DNA of 64,000 nt from contig JAFXKX010000009.1 in assembly GCA_017531505.1 (NCBI GenBank), positions 80,154-144,153 of the forward strand, written 5' to 3'. A model generated the notes under the pieces. The model did no database searches, was not told the DNA's origin, and saw only the letters and a program-made list of their open reading frames with translations. Below, piece after piece: positions 40,148-50,528 of this stretch. Positions within the stretch are counted from its first letter, which is position 1, and the number at the start of each line of letters is the position of its first letter. The stretch is from Clostridia bacterium (GTDB lineage: Bacteria; Bacillota; Clostridia; Christensenellales; Christensenellaceae). The position numbers were made by a program, and so were the translations under genes.

Positions 40148-42868
40148 TCAGTTGCACATATACAGATCTATCACATGCTTGCCTGCAGTACTATAGGGCA
40201 AGTGTCCGTCAAAAGCCTTACCGTCCAACTGCAGTTCTGCCTGCGTACCCCAGCCATGTACACGGATATCCAGTTCCATATCGCGGCACTTCAGGCCGCA
40301 AAGCTGCATATCTGCCAGTTTTTCGGGGATCGCCGGTGCAAAATGCAGGCCTTCGCCATCCCAGGATAAGCCGATGCAGGCATTGATAAAGAACCCGACA
40401 AAAGAAGAAGCGTGCCATACCATGCCCGGCCAACGCCATGCCTTACCGGTATCATTATCGATCACTTCATGGAACGTCTTATTCATAATGCAATTTCGCA
40501 CCTGCTGGAAGATAAATTCTTCTACCAGATCCAATCTGCCGGCCTGACCTGCCGCAACTGCCATACCCAGCGTCCAGGATACCCAGCAGCAACCCCAGAA
40601 GTGATTCTTTTCCTTACGGAAAGGATACCATGTCAGACCAAAATAAGACATTCTCTTTTGGATCTCGTCCAGCAGACGCTCTCTCTGTTCCGGCAGCGCG
40701 ATATCAAAACGCGGCCAGATCGCCAGTTCCATACCGGTGGCTTCCCACAATCCTTCACGGAATGCCTGACTGCCGACAGGACCGGTGGTGTAATACCCCT
40801 TTTCTTCATTCCAGTACAATGTTTTTACCTGCGCGAGGATTTCCTTGCCGCGCGCTTCCCACAGCATCTGCTTTTCCGGATACATCGCAGTTTCTTTGCA
40901 AATATTGGCCGCCGCCAGATACATATATCCGTAAAACACTTCGGTACCCATGCAATAGCCTTCTGCCTCGGTATCCGGGAATGCATCCTGTGCAGGGCAG
41001 TTATTGGCGATCACCAATTTCTTATCTGCATCATAATGGGCATCCGCCTTCTGCGCCAGACGTACGATATCCGGCAGCACTTCATACAGCAGTGTCTTAT
41101 CCCCCTGGAGCAGATAATAATCCCAGATCGCCACAGCCGGCATAGCCGCACCATCGTCACCGTTATCAAAACCCGCCTTTGTGATATAGATCAGCGTCCG
41201 CCGCATGACCTCGGGCGACAACAAATTCTGTGTACGCAAGGCAGCCTGCGCCGCATCACGCATCCATACACCAAAGCCTTCCCCTTTTCCATGGAACAGA
41301 CCTGCATTGAGCAAGCCTTTCTGCCCCGGCAGATTATACTCGGGCAAGGCATTCTTATACATGACATCGGTTGCGATATTATACGCCGCCTCTACAACAG
41401 GATATTTGCAATACAGGCGGGGATAGTTCAGTTTTGCTTCACCGGTCTTCCATATCTCCTGACGATCCATGACACGGGTCATGTCTCCCCACGGAGTCTG
41501 CCGCCATTCAAATTCTTCCGTCACACGTACAGGAGAGATCACGGTATCTCCATCCGGCGTCCATGCACAGGGCGGCCCATAAATATCATCCTCAACCCCG
41601 TTGGCAAATACCGTATAATCCGGCGTCCGGAACAATACTTCTCCCCGTTCCAAAGATTCCGTCAGTTTACGGCTTTCTGCATCCCAGCGGGCATTTCTGA
41701 GACCGTAAATGTACAGCGAAATGATGTTTGCGGTATCTCCATCACAATTGATTGCAAAATAAGGTTCCCTTACCTGTACCTGATCAAAGGAGTCGTTATC
41801 GATATTGTCTACCTGTGCACTGCGTTCTTCTTCCACATTGCCGATCCCCTGCGGCATATTGATCAGCATCGCCTGACCGGATTGCGTAAACAACATCTGC
41901 GCACAGCGGTCATAGTACCATCGTAATTGCAGCTTGCCGTTTTCGGCAGGTACGCGTATTGCATATTCGCCACAGCGCAAACTGCTGGTCAATGCTTCCC
42001 AATGCCAGATCTTGCCGCAGAAATCAAACGAGATATGGCGTTCTTTGCCGACAAACATCTCCAATACCACTTCTGCACCTTGCGCTCTTACATCATCGCA
42101 AGTACCGTCTTTCGGCAAAATCACAATATTTGGCCAGTTGCTGGGCGCAGTACGGAACCGCATCTCAAATTCAAACCGCTCGGTAATGGGCTTGCAATAC
42201 CACGTCCGCTGCCATACCCGCAGTTTCTCCAAAGCCGCCAACGGTCGCACGCCCTGCGCATCTGCGCAAACCGGGATGCTCAGTACATTGCCAATCGGCA
42301 AAGGGGAATCCTTCAGCGGTGCGGATAACGCCCACTGCACACCCTCTGTGCCAAATACCGCCTCAACATCACCGCTCCAGTGATGCTCATTGTCTGTTAC
42401 AAGCGCAGGACAATCCTCTGCTGCGATCTGCCCGGTCGACCAGTGCAGCAGATCTTTGCTGCTGACCTCATAGGTCTGCTGCAGAGAGGTGCCAAAAGGA
42501 ACAGCTGTATACTGCAGCGTCCATTTACCGTTCCGGCATCCCAGACCTGTCACCTTTGCAATGGTACCGTCTGCCGGTGCAAAGAACAAATGCGGGCGCA
42601 GATCCTCTTCATACGTCCATGCCGGCAAAGTGTCTTTGGTATATACCGCCTGCAGCCAACCGGATTGTGCTGTAATCGTCAGCTGTTTTCCCCATACTTC
42701 CTGCGGCAGCGAAACAGCGGTCCATACATCCGCTCTTTCTCGTGCCAATCGGGCATCAAACTGCATTAATACCCCCTCTTCGGCAGCAATACAAACCGTC
42801 TGCGGGTCTGCATCCCGCTGGATGGGCAAATATACTCTCTTCTTTGCTTGCACGGTAACTTGTAACAT
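40148..42868 (-). CDS. Large two-part glycosidase-like protein
   Basis: This 906-residue cytosolic protein (no signal peptide) appears to have two parts. Residues 1-390 resemble a GH32-type beta-propeller and beta-sandwich: RPHLFFAP (91-98), KDLLHW (138-143) and a sandwich strand LQLRWYYDRCAQMLF (314-328). Residues about 480-830 look like an (alpha/alpha)6 barrel of the GH63/GH78 kind, with a candidate acidic site in GVWMRDAAQ (Asp538) and a Trp-rich barrel core. A C-terminal beta domain follows. GAGG lies seven bases before the ATG. It is the last gene of the glycyl-radical operon, 15 bases after the activase. I cannot name the substrate or family number. Confidence 0.7.
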   Translation of the reverse strand: MLQVTVQAKKRVYLPIQRDADPQTVCIAAEEGVLMQFDARLARERADVWTAVSLPQEVWGKQLTITAQSGWLQAVYTKDTLPAWTYEEDLRPHLFFAPADGTIAKVTGLGCRNGKWTLQYTAVPFGTSLQQTYEVSSKDLLHWSTGQIAAEDCPALVTDNEHHWSGDVEAVFGTEGVQWALSAPLKDSPLPIGNVLSIPVCADAQGVRPLAALEKLRVWQRTWYCKPITERFEFEMRFRTAPSNWPNIVILPKDGTCDDVRAQGAEVVLEMFVGKERHISFDFCGKIWHWEALTSSLRCGEYAIRVPAENGKLQLRWYYDRCAQMLFTQSGQAMLINMPQGIGNVEEERSAQVDNIDNDSFDQVQVREPYFAINCDGDTANIISLYIYGLRNARWDAESRKLTESLERGEVLFRTPDYTVFANGVEDDIYGPPCAWTPDGDTVISPVRVTEEFEWRQTPWGDMTRVMDRQEIWKTGEAKLNYPRLYCKYPVVEAAYNIATDVMYKNALPEYNLPGQKGLLNAGLFHGKGEGFGVWMRDAAQAALRTQNLLSPEVMRRTLIYITKAGFDNGDDGAAMPAVAIWDYYLLQGDKTLLYEVLPDIVRLAQKADAHYDADKKLVIANNCPAQDAFPDTEAEGYCMGTEVFYGYMYLAAANICKETAMYPEKQMLWEARGKEILAQVKTLYWNEEKGYYTTGPVGSQAFREGLWEATGMELAIWPRFDIALPEQRERLLDEIQKRMSYFGLTWYPFRKEKNHFWGCCWVSWTLGMAVAAGQAGRLDLVEEFIFQQVRNCIMNKTFHEVIDNDTGKAWRWPGMVWHASSFVGFFINACIGLSWDGEGLHFAPAIPEKLADMQLCGLKCRDMELDIRVHGWGTQAELQLDGKAFDGHLPYSTAGKHVIDLYMCN

Positions 42869-42883
42869 TTGGGCTCCTCTCTT

Positions 42884-43786
42884 TTAATCGATCAGCACAC
42901 TTTCACACACCGACTGAAATTGCTTTGAAAAAGACTGCATCTGTGCATCCGTCGGAACTGCAAACCGCTGCATCTCCTTTGCAAACCGCCGACCTTTCTC
43001 AATGCCAAAATCATGGTATGTCAGCAAATTGATCTGCTTTATCGATGCACGGACAGGCAGCAGCAGTTTTACAATATTCGCCATTTCCTCCTCGGTATCG
43101 TTGACGCCTCCGATCACCGGGATACGAATATAAAGCGGTTTATATTCTGCCAGACGATACAGATTTTGCAGGATCCTGTCATTGCCAGCCCCTGTATACT
43201 TTTTGTGCTTTTGGCAATCTGCCATTTTCACATCTACCAAAAACAGTTCTGCATACGGCAATGCCTTTTCTACAGAATCCCACGGTACATTCAGCGCCGT
43301 ATCAATGGCAGTCGGGATCCCCTCTGCCTGCAATTGCTTTGCCGCTTCCGCAACAAAATCCGCCTGCAACAGCGGTTCTCCTCCCGAGAAAGTCACACCG
43401 CCTCCCGAAGTTTGATACAAGGTCTTATCCCGCAGCACTTCCTCCAGCACTTGTTCTGCGCTTTTGATATATCCGCATTGTTCCATCGCGCCGGCATAAC
43501 AAACCTGTGCGCATTCGGTACAGTGCATACATTGATCGGCGCAAAACAAATGCAGGCCTTCGGGTCCTGCCAGCTGAGCACCGTTGCTGCACACCTGTAT
43601 ACAGGCGCCGCAGCCGATACACTTTTTTTCATCATACAGCATCTGTATTCTGTTGTCTATAGATTCCGGATTATGGCACCAGGCACAGCGCAGGCTACAC
43701 CCTTTGAGAAACACCGTAGTGCGGATCCCCGGCCCATCATGCAAAGAAAAATGCTGTATATTATAAATCAAAGCTTCCATACTCAT
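42884..43786 (-). CDS. Glycyl radical enzyme activating protein (radical SAM)
   Basis: This 300-residue activase generates the glycyl radical on the neighbouring enzyme. It has the radical-SAM triad Cys30, Cys34, Cys37 in CSLRCAWC, an inserted ferredoxin-like part with eight cysteines (56, 59, 62, 66 and 82 or 86, 89, 92, 96) for two extra [4Fe-4S] clusters, and the SAM-contacting GGVTFSGGEPLLQ motif. The insert is typical of activases for eliminase-type glycyl radical enzymes, not for pyruvate formate-lyase. Its ATG overlaps the enzyme's stop as ATGA, so the two are made together. Confidence 0.93.
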   Translation of the reverse strand: MSMEALIYNIQHFSLHDGPGIRTTVFLKGCSLRCAWCHNPESIDNRIQMLYDEKKCIGCGACIQVCSNGAQLAGPEGLHLFCADQCMHCTECAQVCYAGAMEQCGYIKSAEQVLEEVLRDKTLYQTSGGGVTFSGGEPLLQADFVAEAAKQLQAEGIPTAIDTALNVPWDSVEKALPYAELFLVDVKMADCQKHKKYTGAGNDRILQNLYRLAEYKPLYIRIPVIGGVNDTEEEMANIVKLLLPVRASIKQINLLTYHDFGIEKGRRFAKEMQRFAVPTDAQMQSFSKQFQSVCESVLID

Positions 43787-46032
43787 CGCTGTGTGCGCGC
43801 AATAATTTCATCCTGCTTTTCTTTATCCAGAGAATGAAACAGTGCGCTGTATCCGCAGACACGTACTACAATATTCCGATGATTATCCGGGTCTTCCTGC
43901 GCCTTTCGCAGCTGTGCCCGGTCAATGACATTGAAATCCATAATACTGCCGCCATTCTGCACAAATCCGCGGATCACGCTGACAAATAGATCTCTTCCCA
44001 GTTGACCCTTTGTCACCGGCAGATCCATGTATAACACTCCGCCGCCCGGATAATCGGTATAATCCACAACATTTTGGGCGTATAAAAGCGTTGCCGCATC
44101 GATCCCCCCGGCGTGTTCGCTGGGATTGCCGCCTCGTGACAGATACTCTCCACGCTTGCGTCCGTTTGCAGATGCATTGCTGTTTCTGAACCATTCGAAC
44201 GAATAGAATGTAAACAGTGAAGATTCAAAATAGCCGCCGCGTGTATTTGGGTATCCGTTGATGTGTCTTGCGATATCTGCCATACACTGCTGTGTAAATT
44301 CCCTGATTTCCGGATCCGGATGTCCCATCTTGGCAATACGGTTGCGCAGATATTGACGCAGCGGCTCATATCCCTCAAAATCGCAAGCCAATGCCGTTCT
44401 TAATTCCTGCATCGTAACAATCTTCAGATCGTATACCGCTTTCTTGATCGCAAACAAAGAATCTATCACTGTCCCAAGGCCAGTCATACCAAAACTATCC
44501 GAGTTATATCTTGCGCCGCCTTCTGTTACATCCAGTTCGTTTTGAATACAGTCCGCCATTACCGCCGAATACAGCGGACAGGGATTTGTCTCCGGCCATT
44601 GCAAAGCCAGCTGATTGTACTTATGGACAAAGTTCTGTATCTGCACTCCGAAGTTATACATTGCCCGACGATAGAACACCTCAAAACTTTCTGCTCTGTA
44701 TGCAGGCATAAAATGCACCATATCCCCGGCTGCGGCAAATATCTGTTCCCACTTTTCCGGGAACAACGATACATCCATCATATGCGCCATATTCAAATAC
44801 ACATATGCACGGCTGTTCAGTTCACAGGACAATGTCGGCTCCTGGCAGCCACCGGCCAGATACAATCTGGCGTCCGCTTCCCTCTTGCCGGCTTTGATCT
44901 GCGACGCAATGATCGCCTTGTCATTAAATACCGACAATACATTGGTACCGCTTTTTGCCAGATCCGCCAACTTTTCCAGATATTCCGACGGATGATCATC
45001 GCGTATACGGGCCTGCAGTTTCGGGTTTGCGAACCGGTGCTTCTCCATACTGATGATCAGCATTTCCGTCACGGTATTGTAAACAGATTTCCCTTCTGCA
45101 TCACATCCGCCAATGATCACCGTGGCATTGGTTCCGCCGGGCAGTTCCCGGTTCAGATCCCAGCGAGCATCTGTAATCGCCATAAAGCAATCTATCAATG
45201 CCTGCGCCTGCTCTCTGTCCAAACGGCCCGCCGCTATATCCTTTTGATAATACGGCCACAAAATACGGTCAAGATGCCCATATACCGCAAACCCGATACC
45301 CTCCAGTGCATTGTGCATCTCTCTTATAAAGCATACGGTACACAGCGCCTCGTAAAAAGTTTGCGCCGGCTGCCGGGGGATCCGCCGTGCAGTTGCTGCG
45401 ATCTGCTCCAGATGGTATCGTTCCTGCGGATCTTCTGTTACCTTCAATAAGCGCTCTGCTTCGTCTGCAAACCGTTCTGCGATCTGCATAACGCTATCCA
45501 ATCCGCAGATCATGCTCTCGTAAAAGGCAATGCGGCCCTGTTCTTTGCGCTCCTGTACCTCCGCCAGTTTGGATAGCGCCTGTGCTTTCAGTCCTTCCAA
45601 ACCAAACTCCAATACCCGCTCCACATCTGCATAGTGATGTGCAAAATCCGCAAACATAACGCCGCCGATCATCAAAGCCTTATCGTAATTTGCCAGCCAT
45701 GTCTCGTTGTAATCATGCAGCAGTTGCTTGTTCTGTGCCATCAACCAGGTTGCCAGACCCGGCTCGGGCGGCCAGGTGGAGGTGATGCTGTTGCGATCCC
45801 GCCCTGTATCCAGTTCCATATAAAACGGACACGCCGGCATCAATCTGACTTTACAATCCCGTGCAGCCATCCGGTATATCCACGCTTTCTTTTGAAAAGC
45901 CGATGCCTGCGGGTTTTCCGCCTGCATAATATCCAATTTTTGATACAATCCGCTTATATCCGTCGGATACGTTTCAAACACTTTGCGGAATTGACCAAAC
46001 ATCTTTTCGCGGTCAAATACGAATCTACTCAT
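43783..46032 (-). CDS. Glycyl radical enzyme, eliminase-type, substrate unknown
   Basis: This 749-residue protein belongs to the PFL-like superfamily. The C-terminal radical site is Gly727 in VRVCGYSALF; the thiyl cysteine is Cys396 in GGCQEPT, with Glu398 two residues on. The Cys-x-Glu pair marks eliminase/dehydratase or lyase types (for example glycerol dehydratase, choline lyase, hydroxyproline dehydratase), and pyruvate formate-lyase instead has Cys-Cys. The length is slightly shorter than those enzymes. I could not match it to a known specificity group. It is preceded by AGAGGGAAT and lies 10 bases after the alcohol dehydrogenase gene. Confidence 0.92.
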   Translation of the reverse strand: MSRFVFDREKMFGQFRKVFETYPTDISGLYQKLDIMQAENPQASAFQKKAWIYRMAARDCKVRLMPACPFYMELDTGRDRNSITSTWPPEPGLATWLMAQNKQLLHDYNETWLANYDKALMIGGVMFADFAHHYADVERVLEFGLEGLKAQALSKLAEVQERKEQGRIAFYESMICGLDSVMQIAERFADEAERLLKVTEDPQERYHLEQIAATARRIPRQPAQTFYEALCTVCFIREMHNALEGIGFAVYGHLDRILWPYYQKDIAAGRLDREQAQALIDCFMAITDARWDLNRELPGGTNATVIIGGCDAEGKSVYNTVTEMLIISMEKHRFANPKLQARIRDDHPSEYLEKLADLAKSGTNVLSVFNDKAIIASQIKAGKREADARLYLAGGCQEPTLSCELNSRAYVYLNMAHMMDVSLFPEKWEQIFAAAGDMVHFMPAYRAESFEVFYRRAMYNFGVQIQNFVHKYNQLALQWPETNPCPLYSAVMADCIQNELDVTEGGARYNSDSFGMTGLGTVIDSLFAIKKAVYDLKIVTMQELRTALACDFEGYEPLRQYLRNRIAKMGHPDPEIREFTQQCMADIARHINGYPNTRGGYFESSLFTFYSFEWFRNSNASANGRKRGEYLSRGGNPSEHAGGIDAATLLYAQNVVDYTDYPGGGVLYMDLPVTKGQLGRDLFVSVIRGFVQNGGSIMDFNVIDRAQLRKAQEDPDNHRNIVVRVCGYSALFHSLDKEKQDEIIARTQR

Positions 46033-46042
46033 ATATTCCCTC

Positions 46043-47065
46043 TTAAAATTTCAATACAACTTTCAAGCCTTCTCTGCTGCCGACCAAGCGGAATCCTTCC
46101 TCAAATTCTTCGATCGGTAAAATGTGTGTCACAAAATCCTTAAGATCGATATCCCCCTGCAAGGTATACTGCATCACTTCATCGTGTACTGCTTCCTCAC
46201 GCTCGGGAATCGGCCACTGTACCGAATGTATTTTGAAATTATACGGTCCTCTGTTCCATGCAATCCCCTTGTCTTCCTCTATGCCGATACCATAGATGCC
46301 GATAACCGCGTCATCCTTGATCAATCCCAGTGCCTCCGAAAGGATCCCGCAGCGCCCTACCGCATCAATATAAAAATCCAGTTTTTCAGGGCAAGCTTCC
46401 AGTACTGCTTTTGCAAAATCCTGCTGCTTCTTATTGATCGCCAGATCTGCCCCTTGTTTTTTCGCTATTGCGATACGCCAATCGTGATGTCCGCTCAGCG
46501 CAACAAACTCCGCACCCAGCAATTTTGCGGCTTTTACCATCGCAATACCTACCGGGCCGCAGCCACTGATCGCCACTTTATGTCCTTTGCCGACGCCCAG
46601 TCTTTTGAGGGCACTGTATACTTCCTTGACGGTGATCAGCATCGTACCGTCTACAGGATCGATCCCTTCCGGGATCACCTGCTGTGTAATATCCCCCACA
46701 TTGGCGGGCATACCGTCTGCAACCAATGCCTCATAGTCTACAACACGGCCATATTCCGCAAAGCCTCCCCAAAGGCTGGCATAATCCTGCATATCTCCAA
46801 GGCCGCTGCGTAATACATAGTCACCGACCTTATACTTTGTGACTTTTTCCCCTACTGCCAAAACCTGCCCGACGGCCTCATGCCCCAATACTGCCGGATA
46901 GGTGGAAAATCCGTTCAGATGTCCTTCTCGCAGTTTGGTATCGGTTCCATTACAGATACCGCATGCAATCGTTTTGACCAGCGCTGTGTATGGTGTGACT
47001 TCCGGTACAGGAATATTATTTTCCAGTTTTATCGTACCATTTCCGTAAACTACAAGTCCTTTCAT
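46043..47065 (-). CDS. Zinc-type alcohol/polyol dehydrogenase (MDR family)
   Basis: This 340-residue medium-chain dehydrogenase has a catalytic zinc set (Cys35, His62, Glu63 in CGICNGTD and GHE) and a Rossmann motif ISGCGPVGIAM. The four cysteines of the structural zinc are absent, so it is a sub-type like some sorbitol/threonine dehydrogenases. It is the first gene of the operon, under the candidate promoter and operator at 47096-47150, with AAGGGGT seven bases before the ATG. In the pathway it could reduce the aldehyde or ketone made by the radical enzyme, or oxidise its substrate. Confidence 0.88.
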   Translation of the reverse strand: MKGLVVYGNGTIKLENNIPVPEVTPYTALVKTIACGICNGTDTKLREGHLNGFSTYPAVLGHEAVGQVLAVGEKVTKYKVGDYVLRSGLGDMQDYASLWGGFAEYGRVVDYEALVADGMPANVGDITQQVIPEGIDPVDGTMLITVKEVYSALKRLGVGKGHKVAISGCGPVGIAMVKAAKLLGAEFVALSGHHDWRIAIAKKQGADLAINKKQQDFAKAVLEACPEKLDFYIDAVGRCGILSEALGLIKDDAVIGIYGIGIEEDKGIAWNRGPYNFKIHSVQWPIPEREEAVHDEVMQYTLQGDIDLKDFVTHILPIEEFEEGFRLVGSREGLKVVLKF

Positions 47066-47095
47066 AATTCTTACCCCTTTTTTACATCAAATTTA

Positions 47096-47115
47096 GATGT
47101 GGAACCGTTCCCACA
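47096..47115 (-). promoter_or_regulatory. Candidate LacI-type operator
   Basis: The sequence ATGTGGAACCGTTCCCACAT holds a perfect GGAAC-C-GTTCC palindrome. It lies just downstream of the -10 of the minus-strand promoter, where repressor binding would block the glycyl-radical operon. The divergent LacI gene is the obvious partner; binding is inferred, not shown. Confidence 0.6.
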
Positions 47116-47120
47116 TATTT

Positions 47121-47150
47121 ATAATAGCATTCTTCCTTTCCCTTTGACAA
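47121..47150 (-). promoter_or_regulatory. Promoter for the adh-GRE-activase-glycosidase operon
   Basis: Minus strand: -35 TTGTCA (47150-47145), 18-base spacer, -10 TATTAT (47126-47121), about 55 bases before the adh start codon, with the candidate operator between. Confidence 0.7.
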
Positions 47151-47157
47151 GTACTAT

Positions 47158-47186
47158 TTGCAATTCGTTATCAACCTGTTTATAAT
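47158..47186 (+). promoter_or_regulatory. Promoter for the LacI-family regulator
   Basis: Plus strand: -35 TTGCAA at 47158-47163, 17-base spacer, -10 TATAAT at 47181-47186, 30 bases before the lacI-type start. It is back to back with the operon promoter. Confidence 0.7.
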
Positions 47187-47216
47187 AAATGCAAGATCAT
47201 CAAGAGGTAAATCGCT

Positions 47217-48257
47217 ATGCATTCTGCGGATCAGAAAGATAAAAAAGCATATCTTACCATAGAAGACATTGCCGCTTTGGCCGGTGTTTCCAAAAGCACA
47301 GTTTCCCGCGTTCTGAACAACAGTGGTTTTGTCAGTGACGCCACCCGCAAAAAGGTCATGCGTGTTGTCTCTTCTCACCATTATGTACCCAACGGTTTTG
47401 CCCGGGACCTGGGACGTACAACAACAAAATCGATCGGTATTTTTGTAGGTGATATTTCCAATCAGTATTTTTCAGAGATCCTTGCCGGAGCAGAAGCGGT
47501 CATCAGCCGTTCCGCTTATTTTCCTTTTATATGCCTTGTATCCAACGCCCGTCGGGAAGAATTCTATATCCGCGAAATGCTCAAGCGTCGCGTGAGCGGC
47601 GTCTTATTTGCAAGCACCGGCATCTATAACCCCGATATGATCACCCAACTGCTGCAAACCACCAGCGCCATTTCTATCCAGACCGATATTCCCGGCATCC
47701 CGTATATCGACTGTGATAATTTGGGTGGCACTTATCGTATCATACAGCATTTGATCTCATTGGGGCACGAACGGATCGCTTTTATCAATTCTTTCGGGGA
47801 AACCTCTGTATTGGAGCATCGCTATCAAGGATACTGCAATGCATTGTCTGACCACGGCATCTCGCTGAACCCGCAATATGTACGCCGTGCAGATCGCACC
47901 TCCAACGGATATCAAGCCGTTATCGATCTGCTCAACCTGCCCGAACCGCCTACTGCGATCCATTGCTGCAATGATCACATTGCCATGAGTGCATATCAGG
48001 CACTGCGCAGCCGCGGCATTTCCATTCCCCATCAGATTTCCCTTACCGGTTTTGATGCGTTGTCTCCCACATTGCTCATGGAGCCTCAGCTGACGACTGT
48101 GTCCCAACCGCTTCATAAAATGGGGACCACTGCTGCGGAAATGCTGATCGCCAAAATCGAGGCCAGCCAACCGCTCCCCGATCCTTCCTCACCCATTTTA
48201 TTCCCTACAGAAATACTGCTGCGCGGTTCCACCGCCCCACCCTCTGTTATTTTGTAA
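47217..48257 (+). CDS. LacI/GalR-family transcriptional regulator
   Basis: This 346-residue repressor has an N-terminal helix-turn-helix (about 13-60: LTIEDIAALAGVSKSTVSRVLNN) and hinge, then a periplasmic-binding-protein-like effector domain (from KSIGIFVGDISNQYFSEIL) with CNDHIAMSAYQALRSRG and TGFDALSPT. LacI members sense sugars or nucleosides. It is the only regulator facing the divergent operon and has its own promoter, with GAGG nine bases before the ATG. The ligand is likely a sugar or glycoside released or used by the operon, an inference from the glycosidase-like partner gene. Confidence 0.92.
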   Translation: MHSADQKDKKAYLTIEDIAALAGVSKSTVSRVLNNSGFVSDATRKKVMRVVSSHHYVPNGFARDLGRTTTKSIGIFVGDISNQYFSEILAGAEAVISRSAYFPFICLVSNARREEFYIREMLKRRVSGVLFASTGIYNPDMITQLLQTTSAISIQTDIPGIPYIDCDNLGGTYRIIQHLISLGHERIAFINSFGETSVLEHRYQGYCNALSDHGISLNPQYVRRADRTSNGYQAVIDLLNLPEPPTAIHCCNDHIAMSAYQALRSRGISIPHQISLTGFDALSPTLLMEPQLTTVSQPLHKMGTTAAEMLIAKIEASQPLPDPSSPILFPTEILLRGSTAPPSVIL

Positions 48258-48260
48258 ACA

Positions 48261-48298
48261 AAAACTCTGCACAAAAAACTGTGCAGAGTTTTATTTTA
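48261..48298. terminator. Terminator after the LacI-family gene
   Basis: Thirteen-base-pair stem AAAACTCTGCACA/TGTGCAGAGTTTT with a short A-rich loop, followed by TTATTTT on the plus strand. The flanking A-run also allows use from the minus strand. Confidence 0.9.
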
Positions 48299-48530: not shown

Positions 48531-49802
48531 TTACTTTTCAACCATAATATCCAGAATTACTTCATCTGTCTCCTTCATACCCTGAGAAGCCAGCACGCCG
48601 ACGCTCTGAATGGTATCTTCGATATTATCCTTGACGATACCTTCACCGGCAGTAAACTGCGCCTGTTCCATCGCCAGACAATGCCCCAAAATCGCAGCAT
48701 CTACTGCAGAAGCGATTTTTGCTGCGCAAGAAGGCTTTGCGCCGTCACAAATAATGCCGGATACATTCGCCAATGTATTGGTGATCGTTGCACAGATCTG
48801 CTCGTAAGAGCCGTCATGCAGATAGGTGATCGCCGCACCGCTGCCGCAAGCAGCGCTGACTGCGCCGCAATATGCAGACAAACGACCAACTGCCATTTTC
48901 TCGTGGATAGCGATCAGATTGCTCAATACCAGCGCGCGCACCAATTTTTCGTGACTGGATTCCAGATGCTTCGCATACTGAATAACAGGCAAAGATACGG
49001 TCATACCCTGATTCCCGCTGCCGGAGTTGATAATGACCGGCTCCAGGCAACCACTCATACGGGCATCGCTGCCTGCGGCTGCATAAGCCTTTGCTCTGAC
49101 TTTGATATCATCGCCGTAATACTTGAGCAGGTTTGCCCCAACAGATACACCATACTCATTTCTGAGGCCTTCTTCTGCAATTCGCTGATTGTATTCGATC
49201 TGTCGGCCGATCACCGCTTCTACATCCGCCAAATTGACCGTATTCGCAAATTCCAGGATCTCGCGCACATTCATTTCATGCTGTTCCTGTACCTGCTCTT
49301 CCTGATTTTCTTCCGTATTCTGATACAATACTTCATCATTTCTGCAGATACAAACAATACGCGTGTGTTCTCTCTCGATCTCTACCGATGCATACTCCTC
49401 ACCTGCATAAGCAGTGATACGTACATGCAGAGGTGCTCTGCCCTTGAGCAGTTTTACTTCACAGTAATTTGCATCCAGCAGCCGTCTTGTTTCTTCGATA
49501 TGTGCTTCCTGCACATCCGCCAGAACTTCCAGTTCCTTTTCTGCGCAGCCGCCAACCACACCAATGGTCACCGCCGCCTCTACGCCCTTCATACCGCCAC
49601 AGTTGGGTACGATAACGCCTTTTACATTTTTAATGATATTGCCGCTGCACTCAGCCAACATACGTTCCGGCTTTTTACCCAATATATCTCTTGCCTTTGC
49701 CGCTGCATAAGCCAGACAAATAGGTTCCGTACAGCCCAATGCAGGCACCAGTTCCTCTTCCAACAGTCTCAGATAATTCTGATATGCTCTTTCGTTGATC
49801 AT
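48531..49802 (-). CDS. cyuA: L-cysteine desulfidase / UPF0597-family protein
   Basis: This 423-residue protein matches the CyuA/YhaM (UPF0597, serine dehydratase alpha-like) family. These anaerobic iron-sulphur enzymes break L-cysteine into pyruvate, ammonia and sulphide. The family motif ALGCTEPICLAYAAAKA with Cys24 is near the start, and other conserved stretches SGNIIKNVKGVIVPN, GSGNQGMTVSLPV and CDGAKPSCAAKIA are present. The ATG at 49802 has GAGG nine bases upstream. It lies 20 bases after a GntR-type regulator, which probably controls it. Whether cysteine or another amino acid is the substrate is not proven. Confidence 0.85.
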   Translation of the reverse strand: MINERAYQNYLRLLEEELVPALGCTEPICLAYAAAKARDILGKKPERMLAECSGNIIKNVKGVIVPNCGGMKGVEAAVTIGVVGGCAEKELEVLADVQEAHIEETRRLLDANYCEVKLLKGRAPLHVRITAYAGEEYASVEIEREHTRIVCICRNDEVLYQNTEENQEEQVQEQHEMNVREILEFANTVNLADVEAVIGRQIEYNQRIAEEGLRNEYGVSVGANLLKYYGDDIKVRAKAYAAAGSDARMSGCLEPVIINSGSGNQGMTVSLPVIQYAKHLESSHEKLVRALVLSNLIAIHEKMAVGRLSAYCGAVSAACGSGAAITYLHDGSYEQICATITNTLANVSGIICDGAKPSCAAKIASAVDAAILGHCLAMEQAQFTAGEGIVKDNIEDTIQSVGVLASQGMKETDEVILDIMVEK

Positions 49803-49822
49803 TTCCCTATACCTCACAAAGT

Positions 49823-50461
49823 TTATTCTATACCCAGCAATTGATTTTTCATTGCATATATGTCATGATACAAAATCTGTTTTGCATGCGCATAATTTTG
49901 TTCTTTCAATGCGCGGACCAGTTCGGTATGTTCGTCTGTACCCTGATCCTTTGCCCATTTCTCATTGAAAAACTGCGCCGCACCGCGGCTGCAAAACTTT
50001 AGTGCCTGCTCCAATGCTGCATACAACAGTAAATTTCCGCACAATCCGCATAAAAACAGATGAAAATCCAGATTCAGCTGCCACTGTTTCCGAACATCAC
50101 GCTCATCTTTTTGCGCCCTTGCCGTTTCTACCTGTGTTTCCAGCTGCCGCAATTGTTCTGCCGTCAAATTGCTGATCGTCTTTTCAAATGCAGCCATTTC
50201 CAGAATAATACGTAGTTCACAGACTTCGTGGATCTCTTTGGGCGTGATCGGCGTCACTTGGTAGCCGTATCTGGGGATATTTTTCAAAATGCCTTCACTG
50301 CAAAGTTGTACCAATGCTTCTCTCACCGGAGTTTTGCTGACTGCATAACGCTCTGTTAATGCCTTTTCGTTCAGAATCGTACTGACCGGAAATTCGCCGG
50401 CAAGAATCCCGCTGTAGATATTTTCATATATAAGATCCTTGATCGATGTTGCTTTGCTCAT
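49823..50461 (-). CDS. GntR-family regulator, FadR/FCD type
   Basis: This 212-residue regulator has an N-terminal winged helix (about 5-70: VSKTPVREALVQLCSEGILKNIPRYGYQV) and a helical FCD effector domain with the metal-type residues spread over 75-205. FCD members respond to organic acids or amino acids. The ATG at 50461 has GGAGGG upstream. It is translated just before cyuA and is the likely regulator of that gene. Two palindromes upstream (50499-50511 and 50523-50530) are candidate operators. Confidence 0.92.
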   Translation of the reverse strand: MSKATSIKDLIYENIYSGILAGEFPVSTILNEKALTERYAVSKTPVREALVQLCSEGILKNIPRYGYQVTPITPKEIHEVCELRIILEMAAFEKTISNLTAEQLRQLETQVETARAQKDERDVRKQWQLNLDFHLFLCGLCGNLLLYAALEQALKFCSRGAAQFFNEKWAKDQGTDEHTELVRALKEQNYAHAKQILYHDIYAMKNQLLGIE

Positions 50462-50498
50462 ATTCCTTTCCCTCCTGTTTCCATCATTAATCATATCA

Positions 50499-50511
50499 CT
50501 GATATTATCAG
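50499..50511 (-). promoter_or_regulatory. Candidate GntR operator, perfect 13-base palindrome
   Basis: The sequence CTGATATTATCAG is a perfect inverted repeat about 40 bases before the GntR start codon. A second 8-base palindrome TGTATACA lies at 50523-50530, of the type bound by FCD-GntR proteins. Autoregulation is inferred. Confidence 0.4.
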
Positions 50512-50528
50512 CGCACAAGAGGTGTATA

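What the first reader, a model, noticed from the sequence alone, without database searches (positions are those of the whole stretch)
40148..48257. Uncharacterised glycyl-radical catabolic locus with an associated glycosidase-like protein
Seen: adh, glycyl radical enzyme, activase and a 906-residue protein form one tightly coupled operon (gaps 10, -4 and 15 bases), with a divergent LacI gene. Known: Cys-x-Glu radical enzymes are eliminases or lyases. Inference: the glycosidase-like protein may free a polyol or small molecule from a glycoside, the radical enzyme may eliminate or cleave it, and the alcohol dehydrogenase may deal with the carbonyl product. No transporter or phosphorylating gene is in the cluster, so the substrate is not one of the obvious ones.
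Basis: partly seen in the sequence, partly recalled or inferred. Interest (0 to 1): 0.8.

Follow-up and report, generated by a model that had tools for sequence, protein, structure and literature searches.

The report
New radical-enzyme operon for fructoside breakdown
A four-gene operon in an uncultured bacterium encodes a glycyl-radical enzyme of an unnamed family, and because relatives in gut bacteria carry the same core genes beside sugar-importer and fructosidase-family genes, it is predicted to help ferment an unusual fructose-containing sugar that would need radical chemistry to break down.

Summary
In detail: ADH, glycyl radical enzyme (GRE), activase and a 906-aa protein form one operon (gaps 10, -4, 15 nt) with a divergent LacI gene. 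The GRE is an unnamed subfamily: at most 25% identical to solved GREs in structural alignment and far below every NCBIfam specificity cut-off it hits, with Cys396, Glu398, Gly727 and His132 invariant in 30 of 30 aligned members. In 22 related loci the activase is always present and the ADH in 19 (the other 3 are cut by contig ends); 20 have sugar-type ABC-importer genes, 10 the 906-aa homologue, 9 a GH32-type gene, 7 a PfkB kinase, 5 a class II aldolase. Of 19 loci that run past the activase, 14 have the 906-aa homologue or a GH32-type gene. The 906-aa protein joins a GH32-like remnant to a predicted (alpha/alpha)6 glycosidase/phosphorylase fold. In one genome without a close GRE it overlaps a GH172 gene in a LacI-ABC operon laid out like the known difructose-dianhydride operon. 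Best reading: import of a fructofuranoside, cleavage, then radical C-O elimination plus ADH reduction of the remainder. The missing transporter and kinase are peculiar to this lineage. Substrate unproven. New variant of a known kind.

The parts
46043..47065 (-). Zn-type medium-chain alcohol/polyol dehydrogenase (340 aa), first gene of the operon
   Evidence: PF08240 + PF00107; best solved relatives sorbitol dehydrogenases, E 5e-21; no NCBIfam equivalog near its cut-off; GIC-x3-D, GHExxG and GxGxxG motifs; ADH gene in 19 of 22 related loci, the other 3 (L028, L029, L037) cut by contig ends
43783..46032 (-). Glycyl radical enzyme (749 aa), unnamed subfamily
44839..44847 (-). Active-site Cys396-Gln397-Glu398 (thiyl radical Cys and CxE base)
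   Evidence: invariant in 30 of 30 aligned members
43852..43854 (-). Gly727, site of the glycyl radical (RVCGYSA)
   Evidence: invariant in 30 of 30 members; Gly_radical domain
42884..43786 (-). GRE activase, radical SAM with two ferredoxin-type cluster motifs (300 aa)
   Evidence: PF04055, TIGR02494 above cut-off 331.5/174.35; CX3CX2C at residue 30 and two CX2CX2CX3C motifs; activase in 22 of 22 related loci
40148..42868 (-). 906-aa chimeric glycosidase-like protein
   Evidence: 8 proteins found, the window's own included, among 7996 scored candidates; homologue in 10 of 22 related GRE loci
41849..42868 (-). N-terminal GH32-like remnant (about residues 1-340): blade pieces and a GH32C-like strand, nucleophile Asp absent
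   Evidence: weak DUF4980, scrB, GH32N and exo-inulinase matches; by eye, no Asp at the NDPNG position in the 9 of 12 chimeras that keep this region (Glu in the near-identical L024/L025)
40154..41578 (-). C-terminal (alpha/alpha)6 glycosidase/phosphorylase-type domain (about residues 431-905)
47098..47115 (.). Putative LacI-family operator TGTGGAACCGTTCCCACA in the divergent promoter region
   Evidence: imperfect palindrome beside a -10-like TATTAT of the operon; the pattern was taken from this site and is not repeated elsewhere in the window; promoter-like sites are no more frequent than in shuffles (13 against 13.6); function untested
47217..48257 (+). Divergent LacI-family repressor (346 aa)
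   Evidence: PF00356, PF13377; LacI genes in 15 of 22 related loci
48261..48292 (+). Terminator-like hairpin after the LacI gene
   Evidence: 13-pair stem with T tail; such sites no more frequent than in shuffles (8 against 7.8)

Best explanation
The operon encodes a CxE glycyl radical enzyme of an unnamed subfamily with its activase, a sorbitol-dehydrogenase-like ADH and a predicted GH32-like/(alpha/alpha)6 chimeric protein, and it is likely an anaerobic pathway for an imported fructofuranoside whose non-fructose or anhydro part would be broken by radical C-O elimination. Proposed order, all inferred: (1) the LacI protein senses the sugar and derepresses the operon; (2) the intact glycoside enters the cell, by a sugar-type ABC importer in relatives and by an unidentified route here; (3) the 906-aa protein, or a GH32-type furanosidase in relatives, splits the glycosidic bond; (4) the released fructose is phosphorylated by a ketose kinase and cut by a class II aldolase, genes that some relatives keep in the same locus; (5) in the GRE, the activase-made Gly727 radical moves to Cys396, which takes a hydrogen from a carbinol carbon of the remaining polyol or anhydro-polyol while Glu398 accepts the hydroxyl proton; the neighbouring C-O bond breaks, helped by His132; (6) the ADH reduces the resulting carbonyl and regenerates NAD(P)+. 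Shown: the genes, their order, invariant catalytic residues, predicted folds and recurring neighbourhoods. Not shown: any substrate, product or expression.
Against: None of the window's immediate neighbours that I scanned is an importer, kinase, aldolase or GH32. In the 80.5%-complete own assembly the one SBP_bac_1 protein sits among genes that look like a polyamine-type ABC set (one permease tested; inference). L031, L032, L033, L037 and L135 run past the activase without a chimera or GH32-type gene; L037 is of the window's own genus, and its genome has no chimera. Only 2 of 6 genus mates have the GRE at high similarity. Ordinary hydrolysis of fructosides needs no radical enzyme, so the part that needs the GRE is unknown. 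Glycerol dehydratase residues H281, S282 and D447 align to F248, A249 and A409 (their roles are recalled). GH172 can also act on D-arabinofuranosides (PMC8605356), so fructose is not the only furanoside possible.
Confidence: 0.4

Rival explanations
1. The GRE acts on a free, unglycosylated polyol or anhydrohexitol (1,5-anhydroglucitol-like) that comes in unphosphorylated, a PTS-free version of the radical glycolysis of YbiW/PflD; the glycosidase-like protein is only an upstream feeder.
For: YbiW and PflD are GREs reported to cleave 1,5-anhydrohexitol 6-phosphates (PMC12441222 passages; PDB titles). In E. coli annotations fsaA lies beside ybiWY, and pflDC lies near PTS genes, fsaB and gldA. L031-L033 keep ABC, ADH, GRE and activase with no glycosidase recognised.
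Against: The window GRE is not close to YbiW or PflD (26% by BLASTP; apart in the tree; profile bits 300-302 against 382-383 for HypD, GD and PD). Five of the 22 loci carry class II aldolases, which are not of the Fsa type.
Confidence: 0.2
2. A glycerol or small-diol dehydratase pathway: the 906-aa protein frees glycerol or a short diol from a glycoside, the GRE dehydrates it and the ADH makes the alcohol.
For: Predicted fold close to propanediol and glycerol dehydratases and His132 aligned to GD His164. The (alpha/alpha)6 domain resembles 2-O-alpha-glucosylglycerol phosphorylase among many others.
Against: H281, S282 and D447 of GD are not conserved (roles recalled). The GRE is no closer to GD than to HypD (382.3 against 383 bits). 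None of the neighbours I scanned by Pfam is a propanediol-type or microcompartment protein; the rest were not scanned.
Confidence: 0.12
3. The 906-aa protein is a glycoside phosphorylase and supplies the sugar phosphate that the first reader missed.
Confidence: 0.15
4. The furanoside is a D-arabinofuranoside and the ketose kinase/aldolase pair handles ribulose 1-phosphate; the GRE handles an arabinitol or similar unit.
For: GH172 also has D-arabinofuranosidase activity (PMC8605356 passages). The (alpha/alpha)6 region weakly matches the exo-beta-D-arabinanase 8ic6.
Against: The GH32-type partners, with a true GH32 in L036, are of the fructosidase family.
Confidence: 0.08

Closest known systems
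CxE glycyl radical eliminases (glycerol/propanediol dehydratase, HypD, CutC)
   Different: 22-25% identity in structural alignment; residues invariant in this family around TDARWDL...GGTNA and E404/R408; other substrate-contact residues; linked in relatives to sugar ABC importers and furanosidase-family genes
YbiW/PflD anhydrohexitol-phosphate pathway ('radical-mediated glycolysis', Ma et al. 2024, known here only through PMC12441222)
   Same: A GRE inside carbohydrate fermentation; aldolase and alcohol dehydrogenase genes as neighbours
   Different: That route begins with PTS phosphorylation; here relatives have ABC import, separate PfkB-type kinases and class II aldolases, and the GRE is 26% identical
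Difructose dianhydride operons (B. dentium GH172-GH32-ABC-LacI; Blautia GH91-GH32-ABC, with a sugar kinase in two strains)
   Same: ABC import of an intact disaccharide, intracellular GH32-type enzyme, and in relatives GH172, LacI or a sugar kinase nearby (L133, L030)
   Different: No GRE is described there ('glycyl' occurs 0 times in PMC11538131; PMC8605356 was read only in passages); here the GRE-ADH pair is the constant core
E. coli YdjH/YdjI ketose kinase and aldolase
   Same: Best solved hits of the kinase and aldolase of L024
   Different: Kinase similarity is low and tied with a ribokinase (52.9 against 52.1 bits); their C1-kinase/DHAP-aldolase roles are recalled, not tested

Membership tests
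Glycyl radical enzyme superfamily | Gly radical loop, thiyl Cys, PFL-like barrel, dedicated radical SAM activase | tested here: met
   PF02901, PF01228, invariant C396 and G727, model fold, TIGR02494 activase above cut-off
CxE eliminase class of GREs | Cys-x-Glu in the active site and eliminase-type fold | tested here: met
   C396-Q-E398 in 30 of 30; fold. CxE also occurs in arylacetate decarboxylases (recalled), so the class is likely, not proven
Glycerol/propanediol dehydratase | Diol-binding residues corresponding to GD H164, H281, S282, D447 | tested here: not met
   Only H164 is kept (H132); the others align to F248, A249, A409 (one gap near D447); residue roles recalled
HypD, CutC, sulfopropanediol dehydratases, HPAD, indoleacetate decarboxylase, PFL | NCBIfam equivalog cut-off | tested here: not met
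   All far below cut-off, e.g. HypD 284.6/1100, HpsG 277.1/1000, CutC 234.3/1050, HPAD 159.6/1150
YbiW/PflD anhydrohexitol-phosphate lyases | Close relationship with E. coli YbiW or PflD | tested here: not met
   26% identity; apart in a tree that holds only these two reference GREs
GH32 | Catalytic Asp (NDPNG), RDP and EC motifs in the 906-aa protein | tested here: not met
   No Asp at the nucleophile place in the 9 chimeras that keep this region, Glu in two near-identical ones; middle of the propeller missing (by eye)
(alpha/alpha)6 glycosidases/phosphorylases (GH65, GH94, GH78, GH63 type) | (alpha/alpha)6 fold of residues ~431-905 | tested here: met
Difructose dianhydride degradation system | GH172 or GH91 plus GH32 plus ABC in one operon | tested here: not met
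   None of the three is in the window operon; L133 has the chimera, GH172, LacI and ABC, and its genome has no GRE of this clade at E <= 1e-200

The most novel reading that the evidence does not exclude
The GRE itself is a radical fructoside opener. It takes the hydrogen from C6 of a fructofuranose unit (difructose dianhydride or diheterolevulosan type), expels the ring oxygen at C5, and so opens the furanose and releases its partner without hydrolysis. The ADH reduces the 6-aldehyde to 5-deoxy-fructose, the linked ketose kinase phosphorylates C1, and the class II aldolase cuts it to dihydroxyacetone phosphate and 3-hydroxypropanal: an ABC-fed, PTS-free radical glycolysis, and a glycyl radical enzyme that breaks a glycoside.
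Probability: 0.1. Interest if true: 0.9.

Novelty: new variant of a known kind. Interest (0 to 1): 0.6.

Why it matters
Many abundant gut GREs have no known function (stated in the review PMC11574389, passages). This subfamily is uncommon: 7 of 397 Lachnospiraceae genomes, a draw that includes its centre genome and others already in hand, and 1 of 391 genomes of the host's class, the window's own, at E <= 1e-200. It occurs in named strains (Blautia massiliensis GD8, Diplocloster modestus and agilis; also Murimonas intestini DSM 26524, whose record is flagged UNVERIFIED_CONTAM), and its neighbours narrow the substrate from 'any polyol' towards sugars of the fructofuranoside kind. That makes the function directly testable by growth and transcription on a short list. 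If the GRE breaks fructose anhydrides or anhydro-sugars that come in unphosphorylated, radical chemistry would be a further route of carbohydrate breakdown beside hydrolysis and phosphorolysis. The 906-aa protein is also an unusual glycosidase architecture, a GH32 remnant fused to an (alpha/alpha)6 barrel.

Tried and rejected
Substrate by orthology: NCBIfam and PDB searches of GRE, ADH and activase gave no specificity match. Myo-inositol route: IolC-type models hit the kinases of the related loci and an IolM model hits the ADH only weakly (90.4/300 for L024 and 93.1/450 bits), dropped. Transporter, kinase and aldolase elsewhere in the own genome: two aldolases above cut-off plus a 21.5-bit fragment and two PfkB genes exist, all on other contigs; no match to the L022 ketohexokinase; one SBP_bac_1, in what looks like a polyamine ABC set (inference). 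GH32 in the own genome was not searched for. GH chimera in the host's class: besides the window itself, only partial hits to the C-terminal region in 3 of 391 genomes, in 1400-3227-aa frames, not used. Fold rows: no GRE with known specificity stands out by Z, so specificity by fold was given up. LacI operator conservation: a script looking for near-perfect 18-bp CG-centred palindromes missed the window's own site, found one shared site in L029, L035 and L076 and another in L038; not used as evidence. Literature: searches returned nothing; 11 (40 of 60 listed), 30, 42, 45, 50 (15 of 19 listed), 66 and 82 (40 of 208 listed) returned listings in which I saw no description of this cluster (titles and abstract starts). 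Read in passages: PMC12441222, PMC8605356, PMC11538131, PMC7077986, PMC11574389, PMC8950772 (the last only a reference-list mention). Ma et al. 2024 was not read.

Sampling limits: the 22 related loci are 20 of the 63 loci (those at 38% identity or more) plus L134 and L135. Several are near-duplicates (L024/L025, L038/L039, L031/L033). L026, L028 and L029 end at or inside the activase; L037 begins inside the GRE and runs 2.2 kb past the activase into an unrelated frame. L134's GH32-type gene is a partial frame on the other strand at the locus end. The other 43 loci (about 25-35% identity, no ADH of this kind within 5 kb) were left out of the counts. The tree used 31 rows chosen from these and E. 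coli; L037 (fragment) and L076 (GRE split over two frames) were dropped. Gene starts in the scripts are the first possible start codons. One search scored only the 7996 candidates sharing most words, so it misses homologues.
Full report
Observation. The window holds, on the minus strand, ADH (46043-47065), GRE (43783-46032), activase (42884-43786) and a 906-aa protein (40148-42868), with a divergent LacI gene (47217-48257). Gaps are 10, -4 and 15 nt, and 151 nt separate ADH and LacI. Pfam identifies all of these except the 906-aa protein clearly. This is the only PFL-family match in the assembly of 1,116,522 bases, 80.5% complete. The host's genus includes the genome behind L022, a goat-omasum Clostridia MAG (G001 and record JAFRTU010000018 share the locus). 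Of six genus mates searched, G001 has the GRE in full and G004 a fragment of it; the other four have no match at E <= 1e-30. The chimera is found in G000 and G001 of the seven genomes of the genus.

Neighbourhoods. The search for related loci returned 63 loci. The 20 nearest, plus two from other genomes, give 22. Activase 22 of 22; ADH 19 of 22, the other three (L028, L029, L037) being cut by contig ends; ABC-importer genes 20 of 22, the exceptions being L022 and the fragment L037; LacI 15; chimera homologue 10; GH32-type gene 9; PfkB 7; class II aldolase 5. Of the 19 loci that run past the activase, 14 have the chimera or a GH32-type gene; L031, L032, L033, L037 and L135 do not. Pfam names sampled partners SBP_bac_1, BPD_transp_1, PfkB, F_bP_aldolase and Glyco_hydro_32N. 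In L024 the order is SBP-permease-permease-ADH-GRE-activase-chimera-PfkB-aldolase, with shuffled orders in other lineages. In L022, of the window's genus, a prokaryotic-ketohexokinase-family gene and a SIS gene lie upstream of ADH. In the window's own assembly the importer remains unidentified.

Fructofuranoside link. L036 has a GH32 above the ScrB-family cut-off (367.2/356.4). Four other GH32-type proteins scanned (L030, L034, L035, L038) score 77-92 bits against the Glyco_hydro_32N cut-off of 22.1. By eye, the six non-L036 sequences printed keep an Asp at the nucleophile place, RDP (RDA in L035) and E(C/M)P. The nearest solved relatives of GH32b from L038 include GH117 as well as GH32, all weak, so its substrate is not fixed. 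L024's kinase and aldolase have YdjH (52.9 bits, tied with a ribokinase at 52.1) and YdjI (198.7 bits) as best solved hits. In the Lachnospiraceae draw, 7 of 397 genomes carry the GRE at E <= 1e-200 and 4 of 397 carry the chimera at E <= 1e-40, three of them GRE genomes. The fourth, G773, has the chimera overlapping by 4 nt a DUF2961 (GH172) gene, with LacI and ABC genes and a xylose-isomerase-like gene. L030, a GRE locus, also has DUF2961 downstream. The B. dentium operon of the DFA I synthase/hydrolase consists of LacI, GH32, DUF2961 and ABC genes (PMC8605356, passages). Blautia DFA-III clusters have GH91, GH32 and ABC genes and in two strains a sugar kinase; 'glycyl' does not occur in that paper (PMC11538131). 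In L133 the chimera thus stands where GH32 stands in the B. dentium operon.

Mechanism. From established GRE chemistry, the activase makes the Gly727 radical, Cys396 becomes the thiyl radical and Glu398 the base. The class precedent is elimination next to a carbinol carbon. For anhydrohexitol phosphates, GREs YbiW and PflD are reported to give 1-deoxyfructose 6-phosphate (PMC12441222 passages; PDB titles of 8id0 and 8id7), so ring ethers can be leaving groups. I commit to import of a fructofuranoside, cleavage, fructose through kinase and aldolase, and the other part through GRE and ADH. The bolder reading, in which the GRE itself opens the fructofuranose ring, would explain three things at once: loci without a glycosidase (L031-L033), the constant ADH, and the kinase/aldolase pair. 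No call tests it.

Against. The link to fructosides comes from neighbours of relatives, not from the window. Five of 19 loci lack a chimera or GH32-type gene. The loci are not independent samples. No expression or activity data exist. That no description was found rests in an open-access library, so subscription papers may describe it.

Verdict. Observation confirmed; interpretation partly supported. A new subfamily in a new, recurring setting: new variant of a known kind, interest 0.6.

Noticed in passing
L133:7266-11377 (G773): Homologue of the 906-aa chimera overlaps a DUF2961/GH172 gene by 4 nt in a LacI-ABC operon without the GRE: an apparent variant of difructose dianhydride operons with the chimera in place of GH32.
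   Followed up: partly
L031 and L038 (one genome), L033 and L039 (Diplocloster agilis): Diplocloster modestus carries two diverged copies of the GRE system in one genome (G448), one with an alpha/beta hydrolase and one with a GH32-type gene; D. agilis has the same pair.
   Followed up: no
L076:9953-12243: The GRE reading frame is split over two overlapping frames, so this copy is broken or misassembled; left as it is.
   Followed up: no
L036:13954-17008: Two genes (247 and 763 aa) next to a GRE-GH32 locus have no Pfam match at E 0.001.
   Followed up: no
window 48531-50518: Serine-dehydratase-alpha-like protein (PF03313, 428 aa, no NCBIfam hit) lies next to a GntR-FCD regulator, possibly an amino-acid catabolic pair.
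   Followed up: no
L022:323-2454: Ketohexokinase-family gene and GlmS-isomerase-like SIS gene directly upstream of ADH-GRE in the same genus; the SIS protein is of unknown specificity.
   Followed up: partly
L040, L041, L043-L075, L077-L084 (about 25-35% identity): A wider ring of GREs, mostly in Oscillospiraceae and other gut MAGs, has no linked ADH of this kind and varied neighbours; function unknown.
   Followed up: no
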